From NCBI RefSeq assembly GCF_900143265.1, contig NZ_FRDJ01000001.1, forward strand, positions 186,001 to 250,000: a stretch of DNA of 64,000 bases, given 5' to 3'. Both the position numbers and the translations under genes were made by a program. Within the stretch, counting starts at the first letter, position 1; each line of letters begins with the position of its first letter. This document shows positions 47,646-58,434 of the stretch, piece by piece. The notes below the pieces were generated by a model. It had not been told where the DNA came from. It saw only the letters and a list, made by a program, of their open reading frames with translations, and searched no databases. This stretch comes from Fervidobacterium gondwanense DSM 13020 (lineage in GTDB: Bacteria > Thermotogota > Thermotogae > Thermotogales > Fervidobacteriaceae).

Positions 47646-49349
47646 TTATTCTTCTATTCCATATCTTTCCATCTTATAATAAAGCGTCCTCACGCTTATA
47701 TCCAACATCTTTGCTGCTTTCATTTTGTCTCCGCCGGATTGTTTGAGGGCATTTATGATTATCTGCCTTTCGTATTCTTCAACCATGTCCTTGAGAGGTC
47801 CAATCTTGTCTTGTCTATTCTCTGGCTCTCCAATTTCAGGCTTTTCAGTAGAAAACTCAGGAATGTGCTTGGGCTCGATGTATCTTTCTTCAGGTCCCAT
47901 GTTTATCATGACTCGCCCGATGAAGTTTTCAAGTTCCCGCACATTCCCGCTCCAATGCTTTGAAACGATGTATTTTATTACCGCAGGGCTTATGCCCTCC
48001 ACCATCCGTCCGTATTGCTGGTTGAGTTTTTTAACTATGTGAATCGCTATCTTTGGTATGTCTTCTTTTCTGTCTTTCAGCGACGGAAGGTATATCGGGA
48101 ATACGTTCAGCCTGAAGTAGAGATCCGGTAGGAAGTCACCGTTTCTCATCATCTTTTCAAGGTCTAAATTCGTCGCCGCTATGATTCTCACATCGACTTT
48201 CTTTACGCTCCTGCCACCAACAGGTACGAATTCTTTGCTTTCGATAAATCTTAGTAATTTCGGTTGTAATGACAACGGCAGTTTGCCAACCTCGTCGAGG
48301 AACAGGGTTCCACCGTCCGCTTCTTCAACAAGCCCTCTTTTACCTTCTTGGAGTGCACCGGTGAATGAGCCACCCTCGTAGCCAAATAATTCTGCTTCCA
48401 AAATCGTTTCAGGAATCGCGGCACAGTTGACGCTGACAAATGGTTTGTTCTTCCTTGGGCTTGAATTGTGAATAGCGTGTGCGAAGAGCTCTTTTCCTGT
48501 TCCGCTCTCTCCTCTCAGTAAAACTGTTGCTGGAGTCTGAGCTACTTTTTTTGCTTGCTCTTTTGCTATTTGTATTAGCCTGCTTTCGCCTATGATATCA
48601 TCAAATGTGTATTGAGCTCGCATGTGCCTTATTAGTCTTTTGACTTCTTCAAGCTCGTTGTTTAATTTCAGTATCTCTGAGACATCGTGGACAACTGCAA
48701 CACTTCCTTTGAAAACACCTTTAACAAAGAGGGGCGTTGCATTTACGATCACATCTTTTTTCGCAGGTCCAACTTTAAGCCTTGCATTATAGATAGGCTG
48801 TCTGATTTTAGCAATAAGCATGTGGATACTCTCGCCTTCAGCTATGTCAACGGTTGCGGGTTTCCCAACTACTTCCTCAGGCGAATACCCTGTTATCTTT
48901 GTGTAGGCTTTGTTGACCAATCTCACAATACCGTTTTCGTCAGCTACGCTTATCGCATCGTTAGTGGAATCTATTATCGCCTTGAGTTGTGCTTCTATCT
49001 CTTTTAGGTTCGTAATTTCTTCCGCAAGCTTCCTGAGGCTTGTTATATCTCTGAAAACAGCAACCGCGCCTATTATATTGCCGTTTTCGTCTCTTATGGG
49101 AATGCGAGATGTTATGATAACAGCGTTTTCCGTGTGCTGGACTTGGTCGATTTCTGGAAGTCCCGTGCGCACAACGATGTGCAGTCTTGTGTTTTTAACT
49201 ACTTCATCCACCTTTTTCCCAACAATGTCAGAAGGCAATCCGAGAAGTCGCTGTGCGTTTTTGTTGACGTATACAACACGAGCTTCTTTGTCAACTATTA
49301 TTATTCCCTCTATAATAGAATCAAGAACTATTCTGAGAATTCTTTCCAT
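47646..49349 (-). CDS. Sigma-54-type transcriptional activator with two PAS domains
   Basis: The 567-residue protein has PAS domains at about 1-110 and 120-225, a AAA+ domain with Walker A GESGTGKE (280-287), the sigma-54 contact loop GSFTGA (327-332, usual form GAFTGA), Walker B GGTLFLDE (346-353) and the R-finger region, then a Fis-type helix-turn-helix (KMKAAKMLDISVRTLYYKMERYGI). Such activators hydrolyse ATP to open sigma-54 promoters in response to a PAS-bound ligand or redox cue. It is placed between a UPF0047 gene and an MFS transporter and may regulate both. Whether this genome has an rpoN gene cannot be told from this window. Confidence 0.9.
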   Translation of the reverse strand: MERILRIVLDSIIEGIIIVDKEARVVYVNKNAQRLLGLPSDIVGKKVDEVVKNTRLHIVVRTGLPEIDQVQHTENAVIITSRIPIRDENGNIIGAVAVFRDITSLRKLAEEITNLKEIEAQLKAIIDSTNDAISVADENGIVRLVNKAYTKITGYSPEEVVGKPATVDIAEGESIHMLIAKIRQPIYNARLKVGPAKKDVIVNATPLFVKGVFKGSVAVVHDVSEILKLNNELEEVKRLIRHMRAQYTFDDIIGESRLIQIAKEQAKKVAQTPATVLLRGESGTGKELFAHAIHNSSPRKNKPFVSVNCAAIPETILEAELFGYEGGSFTGALQEGKRGLVEEADGGTLFLDEVGKLPLSLQPKLLRFIESKEFVPVGGRSVKKVDVRIIAATNLDLEKMMRNGDFLPDLYFRLNVFPIYLPSLKDRKEDIPKIAIHIVKKLNQQYGRMVEGISPAVIKYIVSKHWSGNVRELENFIGRVMINMGPEERYIEPKHIPEFSTEKPEIGEPENRQDKIGPLKDMVEEYERQIIINALKQSGGDKMKAAKMLDISVRTLYYKMERYGIEE

Positions 49350-49379
49350 AAAATCATCTCCAGCAAATTAAATCGCTTA

Positions 49380-49790
49380 TCATTCACCTATTACCTTCAC
49401 CACAACCCTTTTTCTCCTCTGCCCATCGTACTCAGCGTAGAATATCTCCTCCCAAGGTCCGAGGTCAAGTTTTCCGTCCGTAACAGGCAAGAGCACCTGA
49501 TGATGCGTTAGGATTCTTTTTAAATGAGCATCTCCATTCGTTTCCCCCGTCCAATGATGTCTGTAATTTCCAGCTGGTGCGAGTTTTTCGAGCCACTCCC
49601 ATATGTCTTGGTGTAGACCTGACTCGTTGTCGTTAACGATGATACCCGCCGTTATATGCATTGCTGAAACGAGGCAAAAGCCTTCTTTGATGCCACTTTT
49701 TTTGACAATTTCTTCTATTTTATCGGTGATTTGAACGAGTTCTCGCTTTTTGGATGTGTTGAACCAGAGATATTCTGTGTATGACTTCAC
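49380..49790 (-). CDS. YjbQ/UPF0047 family protein (first copy)
   Basis: The 136-residue protein has the family core: [15 protein letters not shown] (His and Asn), [54 protein letters not shown] thiamin phosphate synthase activity was reported for one member, but the physiological reaction is not settled. The start is GTG with a GGGGGTG site. A second, more typical copy lies at 58033-58434; this one differs by having PWE instead of the TWQ of the other copy. Confidence 0.82.
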
Positions 49791-49891
49791 AAAAACACCC
49801 CCATCTTGTTATTTGTATGTATCTTTGCTTAGTTTTAAACGTTTTCAAATTAAACGCAGTCTAAATACGTAGAATACATTTGTTAATTATA

Positions 49892-49897
49892 ATTATA
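49892..49897 (-). promoter_or_regulatory. Putative -10 for the UPF0047-regulator-MFS unit
   Basis: Minus-strand TATAAT preceded by GTG, about 100 bases before the GTG start. No convincing -35. A weak call; another TATAAT-like sequence overlaps it. Confidence 0.4.
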
Positions 49898-49966
49898 CAC
49901 GACTGAATGCACTTTTTGAATATCAACAAGCATTTTGAAATTTATGGAATTTTATTCTTACTTTGG

Positions 49967-49975
49967 TGGTAGAAT
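49967..49975 (+). promoter_or_regulatory. Putative extended -10 for the cyclase operon
   Basis: TGGTAGAAT, an extended -10 with one mismatch, about 45 bases before the cyclase ATG and correctly placed to head the operon at 50023-57070. No convincing -35. Confidence 0.45.
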
Positions 49976-50022
49976 AGGAACATAACTTTTGAAGCCTATA
50001 ATAAAAGATATTGGAGGCGAAG

Positions 50023-51996
50023 ATGAAAAAGATTCATATCCTTACCATATTTCTCACAGTCTTTATGGTTTGGGCTATAATGTTCAGGCTTGAGTTTACT
50101 AATGTGCCCGATTTGAAGATTATGGACATTTTTTATAAATTACGCGGTGAGATCAGAATCAACCCGCATGTTGTTATAGTTGGTATAGATGAGTATTCTT
50201 TGAGCACGTTGGAAGTGGAAGGCGATACTTGGCCCTGGAATCGGGAAGTTTATGGAAGACTCCTTGAGAAGGTTTTCGAGGATGGTGCGAAGGTAGTTGC
50301 CTTCGACGTATCGTTCACAGAACCAAATGAAGAGGAAGGGGATAGCTATTTTGCAAGCACTCTTTTGATGTATGGAAATGTTGTGCTCGGAACATACCTG
50401 ATTAACGAAAAGCAGACTTACTTTCTTTATAACGAAAATCTCAGGAAAATAATCGAGGAGAACGTATCGTACCTCGATTATGCATACAAAATGAAAAATT
50501 TCAAAGAACTCGCACTTTTGAAACCATTCAAAGTTTACAAGATTAGGCCTATATATGAACCTTTTTCAGTCTCAGCATACAGCGCAACTTACGAAATTGG
50601 AAGCTTGGATGCGGATGGTGTTGTGAGAAGAATTCCTTTGCTTGTGATAGAAGAATGGGCAGTCGAGAATGGCGTTTCTTCCGGAATATTGCCACACATG
50701 AATGTTATTGCCGCTGCTTTGTATTTCGGTATATCGCCAAGTGATCTACTTTTGGATTTTTCTAAGAAGGTTATTGAAATGGATTCACAAAAGATTCCGT
50801 TTGATAACTCAGGATACATGCATTTATGGTATTACGGGAAAGGACCAAAGATCTTTAAAGAAGTACCATTTTACGATGCTTTAAATGGAAAATATGAAAA
50901 GGGAACTTTCAAAGACAAAGTCGTGCTTGTAGGTTACACCGCAACAGCTAAGGGGCTTTACGATCTAAGAATAACACCGTTTTCAAGCGAAGAAGCTGGA
51001 GTTTATGTCCACGCTACAGCGATAGAAAATATGATAAGCGGTGATTTTGTTAAGAGCCTAACACCTTTTTACAATGCATTGCTGGTTGTGATTATAATGG
51101 TCGGAATTACACCGCTTATGCGCTATAGGAGCAAGGTGTTTAACACGATTTTGGTGTTCTTACCAGTCGTTTATCTGACAGTATCGTACGTGCTATTCTT
51201 AAGGCACATTTATGTGACAACATTCTACCCTATTTTAGGATTAGTTGTCATTGGCTCAACAAAAGTCTTAGGAGACTTCCTTGCTGAAAATGCTGAAAAA
51301 CGAAGGATGCGAGAATTCCTTTATAGATACGTGCCTGATAGGGTGGCGGATAATCTACTAAGCTCCGGCGAGCTAAAACTTGGTGGAGAGACAAAAGAAG
51401 TCGTTGTGCTTTTTTCTGATATTAAAGGGTTCACAAGCCGTTCGGAAAAGCTTTCACCTGAAGAGGTTGTTTCATTTTTAAATGTTTACCTTACAAAGAT
51501 GAGCGAAATTATACGTTATAAGTACGACGGAACGATCGATAAATTTATCGGAGACGCGATAATGGCGATTTTCGGTGCCCCTGTTTCATACGAAAACGAT
51601 ATAGAGAGAGCGTTAAGGTGCGCATTAGATATGCGAAAAGGGCTCAAAGAACTTAATAAGGAGTATGGCTATAACCTCGACAGTGGAATAGGAATTCACT
51701 TCGGACCAGCAATTGTAGGAAATATAGGTGCGCCATTTAGAATGGATTACACTTGTATTGGCGATACTGTCAATACTGCCTCAAGGATTGAGCATCTCAC
51801 AAGAGAACTTGACGCTGAAGTTATAGTGTCAGAAGAGGTAATGAAAAGGTCAAAAGAATTTGAGTTTGAGTATCTTGGAGAATATTCTGTGAAAGGAAAG
51901 AGCGATAAGTTAAAGCTATATAAGTTGTTGGGTGAAAAATCAACTGTTCAGAGCGAAGATAAGATCTCCGCATCGACGGAAGATAAAGATGTCTGA
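50023..51996 (+). CDS. CHASE2-domain class III adenylate cyclase
   Basis: The 657-residue protein has an N-terminal membrane helix, a periplasmic CHASE2 sensor at about 25-330 (LKIMDIFYKLRGEIRINPHVVIVGIDEYSL, FDVSFTEPNE), three more membrane helices (340-420) and a class III cyclase domain at about 435-625. Metal aspartates are D466 in LFSDIKGFTSR and D511 in DKFIGDAIMAIFG. Purine-specifying residues are K507 and T577 (DYTCIGDTVNTASR). The Lys/Thr pair is as in the adenylate cyclase CyaB1, so ATP is the likely substrate and cAMP the product. Start ATG at 50023 has GGAGG five bases upstream. It heads a five-gene run. Confidence 0.92.
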   Translation: MKKIHILTIFLTVFMVWAIMFRLEFTNVPDLKIMDIFYKLRGEIRINPHVVIVGIDEYSLSTLEVEGDTWPWNREVYGRLLEKVFEDGAKVVAFDVSFTEPNEEEGDSYFASTLLMYGNVVLGTYLINEKQTYFLYNENLRKIIEENVSYLDYAYKMKNFKELALLKPFKVYKIRPIYEPFSVSAYSATYEIGSLDADGVVRRIPLLVIEEWAVENGVSSGILPHMNVIAAALYFGISPSDLLLDFSKKVIEMDSQKIPFDNSGYMHLWYYGKGPKIFKEVPFYDALNGKYEKGTFKDKVVLVGYTATAKGLYDLRITPFSSEEAGVYVHATAIENMISGDFVKSLTPFYNALLVVIIMVGITPLMRYRSKVFNTILVFLPVVYLTVSYVLFLRHIYVTTFYPILGLVVIGSTKVLGDFLAENAEKRRMREFLYRYVPDRVADNLLSSGELKLGGETKEVVVLFSDIKGFTSRSEKLSPEEVVSFLNVYLTKMSEIIRYKYDGTIDKFIGDAIMAIFGAPVSYENDIERALRCALDMRKGLKELNKEYGYNLDSGIGIHFGPAIVGNIGAPFRMDYTCIGDTVNTASRIEHLTRELDAEVIVSEEVMKRSKEFEFEYLGEYSVKGKSDKLKLYKLLGEKSTVQSEDKISASTEDKDV

Positions 51997-52020
51997 AATT
52001 TCGAATGGGGGTAGGATAGC

Positions 52021-52956
52021 TTGAAAGGAATTTCTATAGATTTTGACGGTACTATATGTGAAGTAGATTCTACTGGAAATTTCTATATATACGGTCAGTT
52101 ACCATCGCAAGATGATGTTTATGAGATGGCTATTGTTTACGAACTGAAGATAGCAGAGAGTATTTTTGACTTAACGCATAATCTTCTGACCGCTGTTTCA
52201 CTTGAAGAAATTCCAATAAAGGTAAGTACTTTTTTCAGGGAGAAATTCAATAAGAACGTAACCATGGAATACGATGAGGAATTGCACGAGTTCAGGATGA
52301 ATAAGCAACAACTTGTTGTTCCGATAGTAAGTAAAAATTCCGGTACTCTCGGAAGTACAATAATAAAAGGAGATTTTTCTCTAGAAGAGGCGCTTGGATT
52401 CTTAGCTTTCTATGATTCTTTTGTTTCAATTGTTGAGGGGATGATTATAAGTCACAGGTTGGAGAACCTTTTGAGAAGTGCACTTGATACTATGTTTGTT
52501 ACGTTAAACAAACGTGTTAAGTTGGAAGAAAGTGACTTAAAACTTATGGAAGAAATAGTTTCAAAGTTATCTGTTGTTGAAAATGTCAACCTTGAAGAGG
52601 CGAAGCTTGCACTTAGAACTATCAATGTAGGATTCGTGGGCTTGAAAGACGAACTCTTTGACAGGATAAAATCTGGTGCTGTGCGAGACGGAGATTACGA
52701 AGAGTTTTTGAAACACGTACAGTACGGATATGAGATTCTGAAGGATATGGACGCTCCGAATTTCATAATCGAAGCTTGTTTATACCATCACGATTTCGTA
52801 GATGGGAGTGGGCTAAGTAAATTAAGAGGGACTGAAATACCCAAACTGGCTTTAATTGTAGGTTTCGCAGAGAATGTTGTGTTGTTAGGAAAGCATAAGG
52901 AAGAAATGAAAGGGAAGTACCCTGATGAATACTTTAGGATAATATTTGAGGAGTGA
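52021..52956 (+). CDS. GAF-like plus degenerate HD-GYP protein, probably non-catalytic
   Basis: The 311-residue protein has a GAF-like N-terminal part (about 45-150) and a C-terminal part (about 165-300) that aligns by eye with HD-GYP phosphodiesterases. The segment INVGFVGLKD (201-210) occupies the position of HDIGKIGIPD, so the catalytic His-Asp and Lys are gone, while DYEEFLKHVQYGYEIL and YHHDFVDGSGLSKLRGTEIPKLALIVGFAE (His256-His257, DGSG) remain. It looks like a sensor of cyclic dinucleotide rather than an enzyme. The start is TTG, with a GGGGGTAGGAT site and 24 bases after the cyclase. The family identification is inference. Confidence 0.7.
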   Translation: MKGISIDFDGTICEVDSTGNFYIYGQLPSQDDVYEMAIVYELKIAESIFDLTHNLLTAVSLEEIPIKVSTFFREKFNKNVTMEYDEELHEFRMNKQQLVVPIVSKNSGTLGSTIIKGDFSLEEALGFLAFYDSFVSIVEGMIISHRLENLLRSALDTMFVTLNKRVKLEESDLKLMEEIVSKLSVVENVNLEEAKLALRTINVGFVGLKDELFDRIKSGAVRDGDYEEFLKHVQYGYEILKDMDAPNFIIEACLYHHDFVDGSGLSKLRGTEIPKLALIVGFAENVVLLGKHKEEMKGKYPDEYFRIIFEE

Positions 52957-52962
52957 TTCAGA

Positions 52963-53598
52963 TTGAGTGTTATCGACATTTTTCCTTATCTTTTTCTTGG
53001 ACATCTTTTTGGCGATTATGTGCTTCAAACAGGATATATAGCGGCCAAAAAGTCAAAGGATATTAAAGTGCTTGGGATACATATTGGACTGCTCTTTTTG
53101 TCACAATTAGTCTTTGTTTTTGGGGAAGGATTTGGTATTAAACACTTTTTGGCTATTGCCATGCTTTCTGGAATACATTTCCTTATCGATTTGATAAAGT
53201 TTCACTGTAAAACAGCCTTTTGTAATTCTTGGAAGTATTACCTCATAGACCAGTTGTTTCATTTATTATCTTTGTTATCTGTTGCCCCATTTTTCGACAA
53301 AGTAGTCCCATTTTTACCTCGCACTGTGGTTACTGTAGGTGCGATCATGATTTTCAATGCATATTTTATCGGAATTCTATCTCATCTGATAGCAAGAAAC
53401 GGTACTTACAAGAGAGACTACATCGGATATTTCATGAGGATGGTCGCACCAATAACTTATTTCATCTCTGTATGGTCTTTCTTAATCTATGCATTGCTAT
53501 GCGGATTCTTGATATACAAGAAGAGATCTATGTTTAACTTACTTAATTATGTATTTACCATAATTGCGACAATAACCTTATTGGAGGTGATGTTATGA
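52963..53598 (+). CDS. DUF3307 membrane protein
   Basis: The 211-residue protein has about six hydrophobic segments and the DUF3307 N-terminal signature LFLGHLFGDYVLQTGYIAAKKSK, followed by HIGLLFLSQLVF and SGIHFLIDLIKF. Members occur in phage-like and SatD-linked contexts; their function is unknown. The start is TTG after GAGGAGTGATTCAG. It begins 6 bases after the degenerate HD-GYP gene and its stop overlaps the next start by 4 bases (ATGA), so it is co-translated with both. Confidence 0.78.
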   Translation: MSVIDIFPYLFLGHLFGDYVLQTGYIAAKKSKDIKVLGIHIGLLFLSQLVFVFGEGFGIKHFLAIAMLSGIHFLIDLIKFHCKTAFCNSWKYYLIDQLFHLLSLLSVAPFFDKVVPFLPRTVVTVGAIMIFNAYFIGILSHLIARNGTYKRDYIGYFMRMVAPITYFISVWSFLIYALLCGFLIYKKRSMFNLLNYVFTIIATITLLEVML

Positions 53599-55763
53599 TG
53601 TTCAAAAGTTTATTACGGTTGCTAACAACTCTTTTTGTTATGGTAACAATTATCGCCTTTGCTGAATTTAAGGTTGTGTCATCATCTGAGAGTGTCGTTA
53701 TGGGTGGGAAGCTGCCTATCAGCATTGAGCTGACAGATAAGGACAACAAACCCCTCAGTTTCTCCCTAAAAGCGAAAGTTTCGCTAGGTGGTTTTGATAA
53801 GCCAGAAGTCTTGACAAAAGGCTTAGCAGTTAACGGAAAAATAACGCTCAACTTCCTGGCCCCAAAGAAAGTGGCTGAAGTAAAGGTTACTTTCACAGCA
53901 GAAACTCCTCAGAAAGAAGTTTTCACTCAAGAAATAGTCATAAAAGTCACTGAAAAGGACGAGAGCGAATTCTCAGAAGAGATGAAAGCATCTATCGACT
54001 CATTCAGGGGTAGTGTTGCCGTTAAAAAAGTCGGGAAGAAGGCATGGGAGTCCATTAAGAAAGATACGCTGCTTCAAGAAGGAGACGAAGTTTTAACACT
54101 TGAAAAATCATATATTATAGTCAAATTCCCTGACGGCTCAATGACAAAGATCACAGAAAACACGCAGGTACTTTTTGAAAAGCTGAGAAGATCCAAGGAT
54201 GGAAAGATACTTGTTTCGATCGTTATACAAAAAGGTGGCACGTACAACGTTGTTCAAAAGATGGTTGCAGGTTCTTCATTTGAGGTCAGAGCGGGAAGCG
54301 TTACTGCTGGGGTGCGCGGTACAACTTTCGGTGTTGAGAGTTTCGATGATAAACCTGTTGTAAAGGTTTGGGAAGGCGAAGTGTTTGCGTTCTTTGGAGA
54401 GAATTTTGTCATACCTGTCTTTGAAGGTCAATCCTTAGCATACGAACTTGGTATGGAACTTGTTGAAGATGTATCACAGTTATTCGATGCTGCTGAGTTT
54501 GAACCTTTAAAAGAAAAATTGCCAGATTTAGAAAAGATGTTCGAGGAGATAGAAGTTGAACCTGAGAAGCCAACTGAACCGGAAAAGCCAAAACCTGAGC
54601 AAGAACCAACACCTCAGCAACCAAGCCAACCAAAGGCATTCATACCACCACTTGGCGTTGAAACAGCCCAGAAGGATAATCAAAAGTATATCGTGTACTC
54701 TATTTCGCCTGAATTTACCATTGGTCCTGTTACGTTAGGTGTAGGCTTGACAGCTTATGCGACAGAAGTTGGCGGTACGTTGTATTACGGTGTTCCTTCC
54801 ACAGAGCCGAGCACAAATATCATCAACATGATTACTATCAATCATGTTGCCTTAAACCTCGGAAACTTCTATCTGAGGTATGGTAATATGCCGCCTATAT
54901 CCTTAGGAATGGGATTTTCAGTTAGGGATTACTTCAAACCATATGCTAAATCGATCGATACGAGACTCGGCTTTGGAAATGTGCGATTGTATCTCCACTT
55001 ACCATATGAAATCACAAAGATTTGGTTCCCAGAAGTTGTTCAGTCCGACTCAGTCTTTGCAGGTGAATTCGAGCTGAAATCAGTTTTTGCTGGTATGGAT
55101 CTCGGAATTGGTGCTCTGTATGACACGGAAGTATCCACAACAAATACTCTCGGAAATGCGACACCAGTCAATCTCTCGCTTTCTGGTTTCGTACGCTATC
55201 CTCTCATGAGCAACTTCTATCTCGGTGCTGAAGTAGGTGGGCAATTCTTAGAAGATATGTCCAAGTATGGTTTAGGAGCATTCGTAGGCTTGAGCGGTAA
55301 AATCGCGGTTTTTGATGTAATAGCAGGTGCGTTTGGAACATGGAACGGCTTCAGACCTTTCCATTTCGGAAGAATATACACCGTTCAAAAGCTTAAGAAT
55401 GAGTTACCTACTCTTGAAAGTGAAGAAATCTCATTCGGTTTCTTGATCGGAACCAGCCTTTACACCGATATAGCAACCGGTAGGTTATACCTGTACGGAA
55501 ACTTCGAAGGAGATATGAATGCTCTTGGAGAAATAAGAGTGGTTATACCACAGATAGGAGCATTAGCAGGATTGTTCATCTACGGTTATTATTTCGACTC
55601 AACGCCATTTTCAAACAACACAGTTCTTGATAACGATACGATATGCTTCTTGAGAATTACATATCCTGTTATGGAACAGAATCTTGTCGCTGGCATGGTG
55701 TACACTTGGGATGGAACTCAATGGATCCAAAGCGTTTATATTGGAAGTGAGTCGAGCTGGTAA
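53595..55763 (+). CDS. FecR-domain protein fused to a predicted outer-membrane beta-barrel
   Basis: The 722-residue protein has a signal peptide (1-23), an N-terminal beta domain (24-120), a FecR-type domain (135-285, with PDGSMTKITENTQVLFEKL and the hallmark SSFEVRAGSVTAGVRGTTFGV), a Pro/Glu/Lys-rich linker (318-350) and a C-terminal region (360-722) of alternating hydrophobic strands (LGVGLTAYATEVGGTLYYG, FYLGAEVGGQFLED, LAGLFIYGYYFDS) ending in Trp, as in outer-membrane barrels. FecR domains often sit beside cyclase or sigma-factor genes. Here the domain would hang in the periplasm from an outer-membrane anchor. Start ATG has GGAGGTG seven bases upstream. Confidence 0.8.
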   Translation: MMFKSLLRLLTTLFVMVTIIAFAEFKVVSSSESVVMGGKLPISIELTDKDNKPLSFSLKAKVSLGGFDKPEVLTKGLAVNGKITLNFLAPKKVAEVKVTFTAETPQKEVFTQEIVIKVTEKDESEFSEEMKASIDSFRGSVAVKKVGKKAWESIKKDTLLQEGDEVLTLEKSYIIVKFPDGSMTKITENTQVLFEKLRRSKDGKILVSIVIQKGGTYNVVQKMVAGSSFEVRAGSVTAGVRGTTFGVESFDDKPVVKVWEGEVFAFFGENFVIPVFEGQSLAYELGMELVEDVSQLFDAAEFEPLKEKLPDLEKMFEEIEVEPEKPTEPEKPKPEQEPTPQQPSQPKAFIPPLGVETAQKDNQKYIVYSISPEFTIGPVTLGVGLTAYATEVGGTLYYGVPSTEPSTNIINMITINHVALNLGNFYLRYGNMPPISLGMGFSVRDYFKPYAKSIDTRLGFGNVRLYLHLPYEITKIWFPEVVQSDSVFAGEFELKSVFAGMDLGIGALYDTEVSTTNTLGNATPVNLSLSGFVRYPLMSNFYLGAEVGGQFLEDMSKYGLGAFVGLSGKIAVFDVIAGAFGTWNGFRPFHFGRIYTVQKLKNELPTLESEEISFGFLIGTSLYTDIATGRLYLYGNFEGDMNALGEIRVVIPQIGALAGLFIYGYYFDSTPFSNNTVLDNDTICFLRITYPVMEQNLVAGMVYTWDGTQWIQSVYIGSESSW

Positions 55764-55807
55764 TTAAATTGGTAGTTCAGTCGTAATTTAAAAGGAGCGT
55801 GCTAAGT

Positions 55808-57070
55808 TTGAATATTTCTCAGAAAAGGATTGTAGAATCACCAACTTGGCTGAGCGGATATTTGTATGAAGGGAATTTGTTCGGCAGACCTTCAAAGATC
55901 AAGCTCAGCATTGAGAACATAGAGTTCTATGTTCTTGAAGGTTATTCTGACAAGTTCTTGAAAAAACTTGCAAATCTTATAAAACAAGGTGTATACGTGA
56001 ATCCGGCAAATTTACGTGACCAAGTTGTGTACATTGCAGCAAAGCTAAATAGTAATCTGAGGCTGAATGAACTACTAAAGGACATTCAGAGTGAAATCTG
56101 CAACATTCTTAATGCCGACGCAGCATCGATATTGATGTATGAGCAGGACCACCTCAGATTTCTGGTAACCGTCGGTAAGGCAAGTGGAAAAATAGAAAGT
56201 ATCCCAGTACCTATGGAGTCTATAGCTGGTAAGATATTCACGGAAGGAAAAGTTTTGATTTTTAACGATCTTGAGAAAAATCCAATCCATTTTAAAGGTG
56301 TTGACAAAGCGGCTAAGTTCAAAACAGAAAACATCGTTGGTTCACCAATTTGGGTCGAAAATGAGAAAATCGGTGTTATTGAAGTACTCAATAAATCAGG
56401 AGGATTTGACAAAGACGATGCTGAAATTGTAGAACTATTTGCAAAACTGATCGGTAGAAAATTACTTAGTACTTGGCAGTATGAAAAGTTCTCAGACGCA
56501 TTTAAAAAAGTGCTTTTAGCAATTGCAACCGCAATAGATAAGAGGGACAATTATACCCATCAACATTCAAGGAATGTAGCCCGTTATTCTGTAGAACTTG
56601 GTAGAAAGATGAATTTGAGCCAACAACTCCTGGAAAAGCTTGAATTCTCAGCTATCTTGCATGATGTTGGAAAAATTGGAATCCCAGACAGCATACTTCT
56701 AAAACCTGGAAAATTAACGGATGAGGAGTACCAAACTATCAAGAATCACACAGTATACGGTGCTGAGATTCTCTCTCAGATTAAATACGTCGACAGAGAT
56801 ATAATGAACGGTGCCCTGGAACATCATGAAAGATTGGACGGTAGTGGGTATCCTTACGGAAAAAGAGACGGCGAAATCTCTTTATTCGGAAGAATAATTG
56901 GAATTGCAGATGTATTCGACGCACTCTCGACAAAAAGAACCTATAAAGAAGCTTGGACTTTATCGGATGTCTTAAGAGTAATTGGTGAAGATGTTAAGAA
57001 AGGGAAATTCTCAGAGGAACTGTACGAGAAGCTTGTTGAACTTGCAAATGATTTGAATTTTGAGACTTAG
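55808..57070 (+). CDS. GAF plus HD-GYP domain phosphodiesterase
   Basis: The 420-residue protein has an N-terminal part of unknown type, a GAF domain (about 70-220, ILNADAASILMYEQDHLRFLVTVGKASGKIESIPVPMES) and an intact HD-GYP domain (about 235-420). Visible active-site residues are H285-D286 in AILHDVGKIGIPDSILLKPGKLTDEEY and HHE at 339-341 followed by DGSGYP. HD-GYP enzymes hydrolyse cyclic di-GMP, or 3'3'-cGAMP in a few. Start is ambiguous: GTG at 55799 adjoins the GGAG, whereas TTG at 55808 is at proper spacing, so I use the latter. It is last in the cluster and 44 bases after the FecR-barrel gene. Confidence 0.9.
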   Translation: MNISQKRIVESPTWLSGYLYEGNLFGRPSKIKLSIENIEFYVLEGYSDKFLKKLANLIKQGVYVNPANLRDQVVYIAAKLNSNLRLNELLKDIQSEICNILNADAASILMYEQDHLRFLVTVGKASGKIESIPVPMESIAGKIFTEGKVLIFNDLEKNPIHFKGVDKAAKFKTENIVGSPIWVENEKIGVIEVLNKSGGFDKDDAEIVELFAKLIGRKLLSTWQYEKFSDAFKKVLLAIATAIDKRDNYTHQHSRNVARYSVELGRKMNLSQQLLEKLEFSAILHDVGKIGIPDSILLKPGKLTDEEYQTIKNHTVYGAEILSQIKYVDRDIMNGALEHHERLDGSGYPYGKRDGEISLFGRIIGIADVFDALSTKRTYKEAWTLSDVLRVIGEDVKKGKFSEELYEKLVELANDLNFET

Positions 57071-57098
57071 AATGGAATAAGACAACAGAGAAAACAAA

Positions 57099-57121
57099 AA
57101 CCGGGGCCTTGAGCCCCGGTT
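57099..57121. terminator. Rho-independent terminator between the HD-GYP and HU genes
   Basis: AACCGGGGC and GCCCCGGTT form a 9-base stem with a 5-base loop. The T-run (TTTTTGTTTTC) is best on the minus strand, for HU, but it may also stop the plus-strand operon. Confidence 0.9.
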
Positions 57122-57143
57122 CCTAATTTTCGGTTTGCTCTTC

Positions 57144-58032: not shown

Positions 58033-58434
58033 TCATCCCGCTATGATTTTCATATATACGTCCCTTGTCCTTGGTCCATCGAACTCGCAAAGAAAAACAC
58101 CTTGCCAAGTTCCCAATACTAAATTTCCGCCGCTGATTATCAAAGTTAAGCTGCTTCCAATGATTGAAGTCTTGATGTGAGCATCGGAATTCCCTTCTAA
58201 ATGGCTGTATCCTGCATCCTCTGGAATAAGTTTTCCCAAATGTCTAATCATATCACCTACAACCGAAGGATCTGCATGTTCGTTCACCGTAACACCACAC
58301 GTAGTGTGCGGAACATAAATTACAACTATACCTTCCCGAATGCCACTTTCACTGACAAATTTTCTCACTTCATTTGTTATCTCAATGAACTCAACACGTT
58401 TTGAAGTTTTGACACTTGTTTTCTTGAGCACCAA
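58033..58434 (-). CDS. YjbQ/UPF0047 family protein (second copy)
   Basis: The 133-residue protein keeps all family motifs: YVPHTTCGVTVNEHADP, the Gly-Asn-Ser-Asp-Ala-His box, LGTWQGVFLCEFDGPRTR. The reaction is unsettled (thiamin phosphate synthase-like activity was reported for one member). The start is TTG after GAGGTGAGCC. It lies 21 bases after the permease and 6 bases before the P-loop kinase-like gene, so it is likely in the BMP transporter operon. Confidence 0.84.
   Translation of the reverse strand: MVLKKTSVKTSKRVEFIEITNEVRKFVSESGIREGIVVIYVPHTTCGVTVNEHADPSVVGDMIRHLGKLIPEDAGYSHLEGNSDAHIKTSIIGSSLTLIISGGNLVLGTWQGVFLCEFDGPRTRDVYMKIIAG

What the first reader, a model, noticed from the sequence alone, without database searches (positions are those of the whole stretch)
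53595..55763. FecR domain tethered to an outer-membrane beta-barrel
FecR proteins are normally single-pass inner-membrane anti-sigma factors. Here the same protein carries a cleavable signal, FecR domain, Pro-rich linker and about 360 residues of barrel-like strands ending in Trp, which would place the sensor on the outer membrane or toga. That arrangement would turn a porin-like protein into a sensor of toga state.
Basis: partly seen in the sequence, partly recalled or inferred. Interest (0 to 1): 0.58.

Follow-up and report, generated by a model that had tools for sequence, protein, structure and literature searches.

The report
Outer-membrane FecR partner of CHASE2 cyclase
A Fervidobacterium-type bacterium makes an outer-membrane barrel that holds a FecR domain in the periplasm, encoded in one operon with a CHASE2 adenylate cyclase, so it probably carries signals across the envelope to cAMP, much like NsrA/CyaK of a legume symbiont.

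Summary
The 722-residue protein has a signal peptide, an Ig/macroglobulin-like domain, a FecR domain (PF04773, 49 bits), an acidic Pro-rich linker and a predicted porin-like barrel that runs almost to the terminal Trp (barrel model pLDDT 80.9, pTM 0.72; best matches AlgE and OprD/Occ porins). The fusion recurs across Thermotogota.

The anti-sigma framing does not fit: no anti-sigma domain, internal membrane helix or sigma gene was found. The constant partner is a CHASE2 adenylate cyclase 1.6 kb upstream, in a five-gene cassette. In 103 Thermotogota genomes all 31 with FecR also have CHASE2; FecR is 2.8-3.4 kb downstream on the same strand in 28. Of six CHASE2 genomes without a FecR hit, one has a weaker FecR-barrel, four end at contig edges, one holds a gene remnant. 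In plasmids, 14 of 14 inspected relatives of this cyclase have a FecR gene next door; S. meliloti NsrA/CyaK is the studied example.

Most likely the barrel reads a signal and its periplasmic FecR domain regulates the cyclase's CHASE2 domain. Signal and contact are inferred. Outcome: new variant of a known kind (NsrA/CyaK-like), with an unrelated barrel. A toga-state role is untested.

The parts
50011..51996 (+). CHASE2-domain class III nucleotide cyclase (661 aa), predicted inner-membrane receptor adenylate cyclase; CHASE2 lies between a TM helix at 7-25 and TM helices at 352-370 and 379-397
   Evidence: PF05226 163 bits, PF00211 105 bits; hydropathy; catalytic-region motifs aligned with CyaK
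52021..52956 (+). HD-domain protein (311 aa), HD_5-like, motif looks degenerate by eye
   Evidence: PF13487 33 bits; same position in the cassette in relatives
52963..53598 (+). DUF3307 predicted membrane protein (211 aa); its stop overlaps the start of the FecR-barrel gene by 4 bases
   Evidence: PF11750 64 bits; hydrophobic segments
53595..55763 (+). FecR / outer-membrane barrel fusion protein, 722 aa (the finding)
53595..53663 (+). signal peptide, residues 1-23 (boundary read by eye)
   Evidence: hydrophobic 5-23, sequence
53664..53957 (+). Ig/macroglobulin-like beta-sandwich, residues about 24-121
   Evidence: VIA Z 12.6, rmsd 2.0 over 100 residues to CD109 9fx2; TEP1 Z 11.6
54087..54383 (+). 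FecR domain, residues 165-263
   Evidence: PF04773 49 bits
54441..54647 (+). acidic Pro-rich linker, residues 283-351
   Evidence: composition; low pLDDT
54651..55745 (+). predicted outer-membrane beta-barrel, residues 353-717, about 18-20 strands
   Evidence: AlphaFold pLDDT 80.9, pTM 0.72; VIA Z 13.5 to AlgE; alternating hydropathy
55799..57070 (+). GAF + HD-GYP phosphodiesterase-type protein (423 aa), last gene of the cassette
   Evidence: PF13487 123 bits, PF13185 55 bits; cassette order
57095..57125 (.). intrinsic-terminator-like hairpin on both strands, after the last gene
   Evidence: consensus scan only

Best explanation
The protein is the outer-membrane half of a trans-envelope cAMP signalling pair. 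Its barrel sits in the outer membrane (the toga) and its N-terminal Ig-like and FecR domains hang into the periplasm on a flexible linker. There the FecR domain contacts the periplasmic CHASE2 domain of the inner-membrane adenylate cyclase from the same operon. A ligand, or a change in the outer membrane, read by the barrel is passed through FecR to CHASE2 and sets cAMP synthesis; cAMP then acts on the genome's cNMP-binding proteins. Shown here: domain order, conservation of the fusion, near-obligate genetic coupling of FecR and CHASE2, a predicted barrel. Inferred: outer-membrane location, periplasmic orientation, FecR-CHASE2 contact, direction of control, cAMP as product, and the signal.
For: (1) In 103 Thermotogota genomes FecR occurs in 31 and CHASE2 in 37, and all 31 FecR genomes are within the 37 (Fisher p 1e-20, ignoring shared ancestry). 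In 28 of 31 FecR lies 2762-3350 bases downstream on the same strand; in 1 (G004) the cyclase is inverted beside it; in 2 it is on another contig. (2) The six CHASE2 genomes without a FecR hit: G072 has a 708-aa FecR-barrel at the right place (FecR 26.4 bits on the whole protein); four end at contig edges (G007, G022, G023, G102); G010 holds only a cyclase remnant. (3) Cassette cyclase-HD-DUF3307-FecR/barrel-HDGYP complete in 16 of 24 loci examined. (4) In plasmids, 14 of 14 inspected relatives of the cyclase have a FecR protein next door, mostly short FecR proteins, twice about 1220-aa FecR-TPR proteins. (5) S. meliloti pSymB has exactly one FecR protein (about 1207-1219 aa, FecR + TPR) directly before its one CHASE2 cyclase; papers report that NsrA, a predicted outer-membrane barrel, and CyaK are needed for signal perception (PMC7529298 passages). 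(6) cNMP-binding matches: median 5 in CHASE2 genomes (n=37) against 1 in others (n=66), p 1e-14.
Against: No experiment and no complex model. Barrel alignments have rmsd mostly 6-8 A, so closure and strand number are not settled; the full-length model is poor (pLDDT 60.9, pTM 0.41). The NsrA barrel shows no detectable similarity to this one (hhalign probability 0.2%) and the FecR domains only 22% identity. In 60 Spirochaetota genomes most CHASE2 genes had no FecR gene close by in the listing, which was cut at 150 matches, so the pairing is not universal. In S. meliloti the FecR protein SMc02177 near cyaD1 is a Clr target and was not needed for perception of the shoot signal (PMC5498481 passages), so a FecR neighbour need not act upstream. 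Thermotogota genomes share ancestry, so the statistics overstate independence.
Confidence: 0.66

Rival explanations
1. It is an effector rather than a sensor: the barrel is a porin or exporter whose assembly or gating is adjusted by the cAMP system, with FecR as docking domain; control runs from cyclase to barrel.
For: It is encoded after the cyclase in the same cassette. S. meliloti SMc02177 (FecR) is a Clr target not needed for perception (PMC5498481). AlgE, a top structural match, is an exporter whose pathway is regulated by c-di-GMP (recalled), and the cassette ends in a GAF-HD-GYP gene.
Against: NsrA, the same domain pairing beside a CHASE2 cyclase, is needed for signal perception (PMC7529298). 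FecR pairs with CHASE2 also in short proteins that have no room for a barrel.
Confidence: 0.2
2. A FecR-type cell-surface signalling protein that controls an ECF sigma factor, moved to the outer membrane.
For: FecR PF04773 is met.
Against: No anti-sigma domain, no internal TM helix, no sigma gene among seven scanned proteins; only one FecR protein in the genome. A protein wholly outside the inner membrane cannot hold a cytoplasmic sigma factor.
Confidence: 0.04
3. Structural role only: an outer-membrane porin whose FecR and Ig-like domains bind peptidoglycan or the toga anchor, with no signalling.
For: Stand-alone barrels of the same family exist, and LysM-FecR proteins paired with CHASE2 kinases suggest that FecR proteins can also be anchored to the cell wall (PMC5192318).
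Against: The FecR-bearing form is confined to genomes that have a CHASE2 gene, whereas stand-alone barrels also occur without it.
Confidence: 0.1

Closest known systems
NsrA / CyaK of Sinorhizobium meliloti (CyaK = SMb20776; NsrA = SMb20775 is recalled)
   Same: FecR domain and a reported outer-membrane beta-barrel on one polypeptide, encoded next to a CHASE2 class III cyclase.
   Different: NsrA carries TPR repeats between FecR and barrel and is about 1207-1219 aa; its barrel has no detectable similarity to this one; here there is an Ig/macroglobulin-like domain, no TPR, and DUF3307, HD and HD-GYP genes in the cassette; the gene follows the cyclase instead of preceding it.
CHASE2 adenylate cyclase / FecR outer-membrane protein / TPR / phosphodiesterase cluster of Campylobacterota (PMC9239204, passages read)
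   Same: CHASE2 cyclase with a FecR-domain outer-membrane protein and a cyclic-nucleotide phosphodiesterase gene nearby.
   Different: A TPR gene in the cluster; their sequences were not examined here.
LysM-FecR / CHASE2 histidine kinase (BiofilmReg operon) of Burkholderia and Pseudomonas aeruginosa (PMC5192318, passages read)
   Same: Exported FecR protein paired with a CHASE2 receptor in one operon.
   Different: The anchor is a LysM (peptidoglycan-binding) domain and the output is a histidine kinase.
FecR of the FecA/FecR/FecI system
   Same: PF04773 domain in the periplasm.
   Different: No anti-sigma domain, no inner-membrane helix, no sigma partner here.
OmpB toga porin of Thermotoga maritima (TM0476; PMC3387000, passages read)
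   Same: Predicted porin-like outer-membrane protein of Thermotogota.
   Different: FecR is not mentioned in that paper (0 occurrences); homology was not tested; the own-genome stand-alone paralogue sits beside oxidoreductase-like and IMPDH-like genes, not ompA (read by eye).

Membership tests
NsrA/CyaK-type trans-envelope cAMP pair | FecR domain and outer-membrane barrel on one polypeptide | tested here: met
   PF04773; barrel model
NsrA/CyaK-type trans-envelope cAMP pair | encoded beside a CHASE2 class III cyclase | tested here: met
   window 50011-51996, two genes away; whole phylum
NsrA/CyaK-type trans-envelope cAMP pair | TPR repeats between FecR and barrel | tested here: not met
   no TPR match in the window protein at E up to 1; present in NsrA
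NsrA/CyaK-type trans-envelope cAMP pair | barrel homologous to NsrA's | tested here: not met
   hhalign probability 0.2%; profile of 8 sequences against one, so of limited power
NsrA/CyaK-type trans-envelope cAMP pair | needed for signal-dependent cAMP synthesis | not testable with these tools
   needs genetics
FecR anti-sigma regulator | PF04773 FecR domain | tested here: met
   49 bits
FecR anti-sigma regulator | N-terminal cytoplasmic anti-sigma domain and central TM helix | tested here: not met
   no such Pfam match at E up to 1; outside the signal peptide the best 19-mer is 1.66 at residue 562, inside the barrel
FecR anti-sigma regulator | adjacent ECF sigma factor gene | tested here: not met
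   none among the seven proteins scanned at 47646-57070
Outer-membrane beta-barrel protein | signal peptide, amphipathic antiparallel strands, porin-like fold | tested here: met
   (prediction only; closure not proven)
Outer-membrane beta-barrel protein | C-terminal aromatic insertion signature | tested here: inconclusive
   ends in W here, but W/R/K/M among relatives
OmpB toga porin | sequence homology to TM0476 | not tested
   TM0476 was not fetched

The most novel reading that the evidence does not exclude
The pair is an envelope-spacing sensor. The FecR domain hangs from the toga on a linker of about 70 residues and can reach the CHASE2 domain only where the toga lies close to the cell body, so cAMP reports detachment or ballooning of the toga rather than an external ligand.
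Probability: 0.08. Interest if true: 0.8.

Novelty: new variant of a known kind. Interest (0 to 1): 0.48.

Why it matters
It gives CHASE2, a sensor domain whose stimuli were described as unknown (PMC5192318), a recurrent outer-membrane partner in a phylum far from Proteobacteria. Together with NsrA, LysM-FecR and short FecR proteins it suggests a rule: FecR is the constant periplasmic part that pairs with CHASE2, and the anchor (two unrelated barrel types, a LysM domain, or none) varies. It would also assign a function to an outer-membrane protein of Thermotogota, where FecR signalling through the toga was found in no paper by the searches made here.

Tried and rejected
Anti-sigma reading: rejected (see membership test).

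Soluble beta-sandwich for the C-terminus: not supported; every row shown for the barrel model is a transmembrane barrel. The N-terminus, in contrast, does look like an Ig/macroglobulin sandwich.

Homologous solved structure: none by sequence with the barrel profile A3 (0 hits up to E 1). Phage families: none.

Homology of this barrel with the NsrA barrel: none found.

Single origin of the fusion: the tree of 24 fused and 24 stand-alone barrels needs 3 changes of label and does not place the fused barrels in one clade. Before the tree, duplicate loci of the same genes were dropped, the split G074 gene (L053) was dropped with them, and one truncated row (L037) was left out. The tree is unrooted, so old fusion with later losses and repeated fusion are not separated.

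Spirochaetota as an independent test: inconclusive. CHASE2 in 49 of 60 and FecR in 54 of 60 genomes, so presence does not discriminate; the FecR listing was cut at 150 matches. By eye I found 4 close same-strand pairs (G108, G133, G144, G152; about 2.2-2.5 kb); most CHASE2 genes had no listed FecR neighbour.

Plasmid neighbourhoods: 14 of the 17 records with at least 80% cover were inspected; three (H5, H7, H8; no annotation at the match, or none in the record) were not. One of the 14 (H13) carried no FecR annotation; Pfam found FecR in its neighbour. Annotated FecR names were checked by Pfam for 7 of the 14 (H1 and H3; H2, H9, H13, H17, H18); the rest rest on the record's annotation.

Literature: FecR with Thermotogae gave 0 papers; CHASE2 with FecR 3 papers; CHASE2 with outer membrane, adenylate cyclase and periplasmic 2 papers; DUF3307 1 unrelated paper. 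The library is partial. The NsrA paper itself (PMC5952392) is not held; I saw its title in reference lists and recall its abstract.

Full report
What was checked. The reported frame is real: window 53595-55763 (+), 722 aa. Pfam finds FecR at residues 165-263 (49 bits) and no further domain above cut-off. The window belongs to a 2.15-Mb genome of the same genus as genomes titled Fervidobacterium sp. (G005 and G006 matched to those titles through contig lengths).

Barrel. Foldseek and VIA matches are porins and other membrane barrels: AlgE 5d5d Z 13.5, rmsd 7.0, 274 aligned; OpdL 2y0h Z 13.3, rmsd 7.2, 273 aligned. The large rmsd means that barrel closure and exact strand number (about 18-20) stay open. 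Alternating hydropathy of the 20 strands I delimited exceeds 1999 of 2000 shuffles. Residues 20-121 resemble a macroglobulin/Ig domain (9fx2 Z 12.6, rmsd 2.0 over 100). With a signal peptide and no internal TM helix, the FecR and Ig-like parts should lie in the periplasm; this is inference from outer-membrane barrel topology.

Conservation. Twelve other genomes of the family hold a full-length orthologue (38-73% identity over the alignment), a thirteenth (G007) holds a fragment at a contig end, and barrel-only (380-395 aa) and FecR-only (about 300 aa) homologues exist. Over 103 Thermotogota genomes the barrel family occurs in 42, fused and unfused. Fused barrels do not form one clade in the tree (3 label changes).

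The partner. The operon is CHASE2-cyclase (50011-51996), HD protein, DUF3307 protein, FecR-barrel, GAF-HD-GYP, with gaps of 24, 6, -4 and 35 bases and a terminator-like hairpin on both strands after the last gene. In 103 genomes, FecR 31, CHASE2 37, overlap 31. Of the six exceptions, G072 has a weaker FecR-barrel in place, G007, G022, G023 and G102 end at contig edges, and G010 keeps a cyclase remnant. Of 24 loci checked gene by gene, 16 have the complete cassette in order (two of them with one gene split into two frames: G003 cyclase, G074 FecR-barrel), 1 has the cyclase inverted (G004), 6 are cut by contig ends and 1 is the remnant. The cyclase catalytic stretch keeps the metal-binding Asp pair, the substrate Lys and the Asn-Arg pair expected of active class III adenylate cyclases (alignment, read by eye; the residue rules are recalled).

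Outside the phylum. The cyclase's plasmid relatives with at least 80% cover are 17 records; 14 were inspected and all 14 have FecR next to the cyclase (12 on the same strand, 2 on the opposite strand). In Paracoccus the order is TPR, FecR, cyclase, DUF3307, so even DUF3307 recurs. On S. meliloti 1021 pSymB there is one FecR and one CHASE2 match, in neighbouring frames of 1219 and 649 aa; the first has FecR and TPR repeats, and its size and place fit NsrA, whose barrel portion is given as residues 600-1200 (PMC7529298 passages). That paper says NsrA and CyaK are both required for signal 1 perception. [quoted passage not shown] In Burkholderia a LysM-FecR protein pairs with a CHASE2 kinase (PMC5192318 passages). 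Against universality, Spirochaetota show few close pairs in a truncated listing.

Downstream. Genomes with CHASE2 have more cNMP-binding matches (median 5 in 37 genomes against 1 in 66), including tandem-domain proteins of about 410 aa; the window genome has five matches. Some genomes without CHASE2 have up to 5, and PF00027 does not prove cAMP binding, so this is only consistent with a working cAMP system.

Mechanism and confidence. The most economical reading is that FecR is the periplasmic contact module for CHASE2 and that the anchor decides where the signal is read: outer membrane here and in NsrA, peptidoglycan in LysM-FecR. Confidence 0.66 for a regulatory outer-membrane/FecR-to-cyclase pair; the direction (sensor rather than effector) is the least certain step.

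Noticed in passing
window 52963-53598; L063 10138-10476: DUF3307, an uncharacterised membrane protein, sits in the CHASE2-cyclase cassette in Thermotogota and directly after the CHASE2 cyclase in Paracoccus, which suggests a role in this signalling module.
   Followed up: partly
L070 8267-9490 and 501-836 (own genome): A 407-aa protein with two cNMP-binding domains and a 111-aa single-domain cNMP protein; similar proteins recur in CHASE2 genomes and are candidate cAMP receptors.
   Followed up: partly
L060 7119-9027 (G003): The CHASE2 cyclase is split into two overlapping frames (334 and 344 aa) while the FecR-barrel frame is intact: frameshift, sequencing error or recent inactivation.
   Followed up: no
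L049 6455-7172 (G010): Remnant of the CHASE2 cyclase with no other cassette gene found beside it; a stand-alone barrel remains elsewhere in that genome.
   Followed up: no
L039, L040, L041 (354-aa frames); also G011-G014: Second, stand-alone FecR proteins of about 296-364 aa in some Thermotogota that also have the fusion; function unknown.
   Followed up: no
window 49380-49790 and 58033-58434, both on the - strand: Two YjbQ/UPF0047-like proteins flank the cassette region (the first is a Pfam match, the second similar by eye).
   Followed up: no
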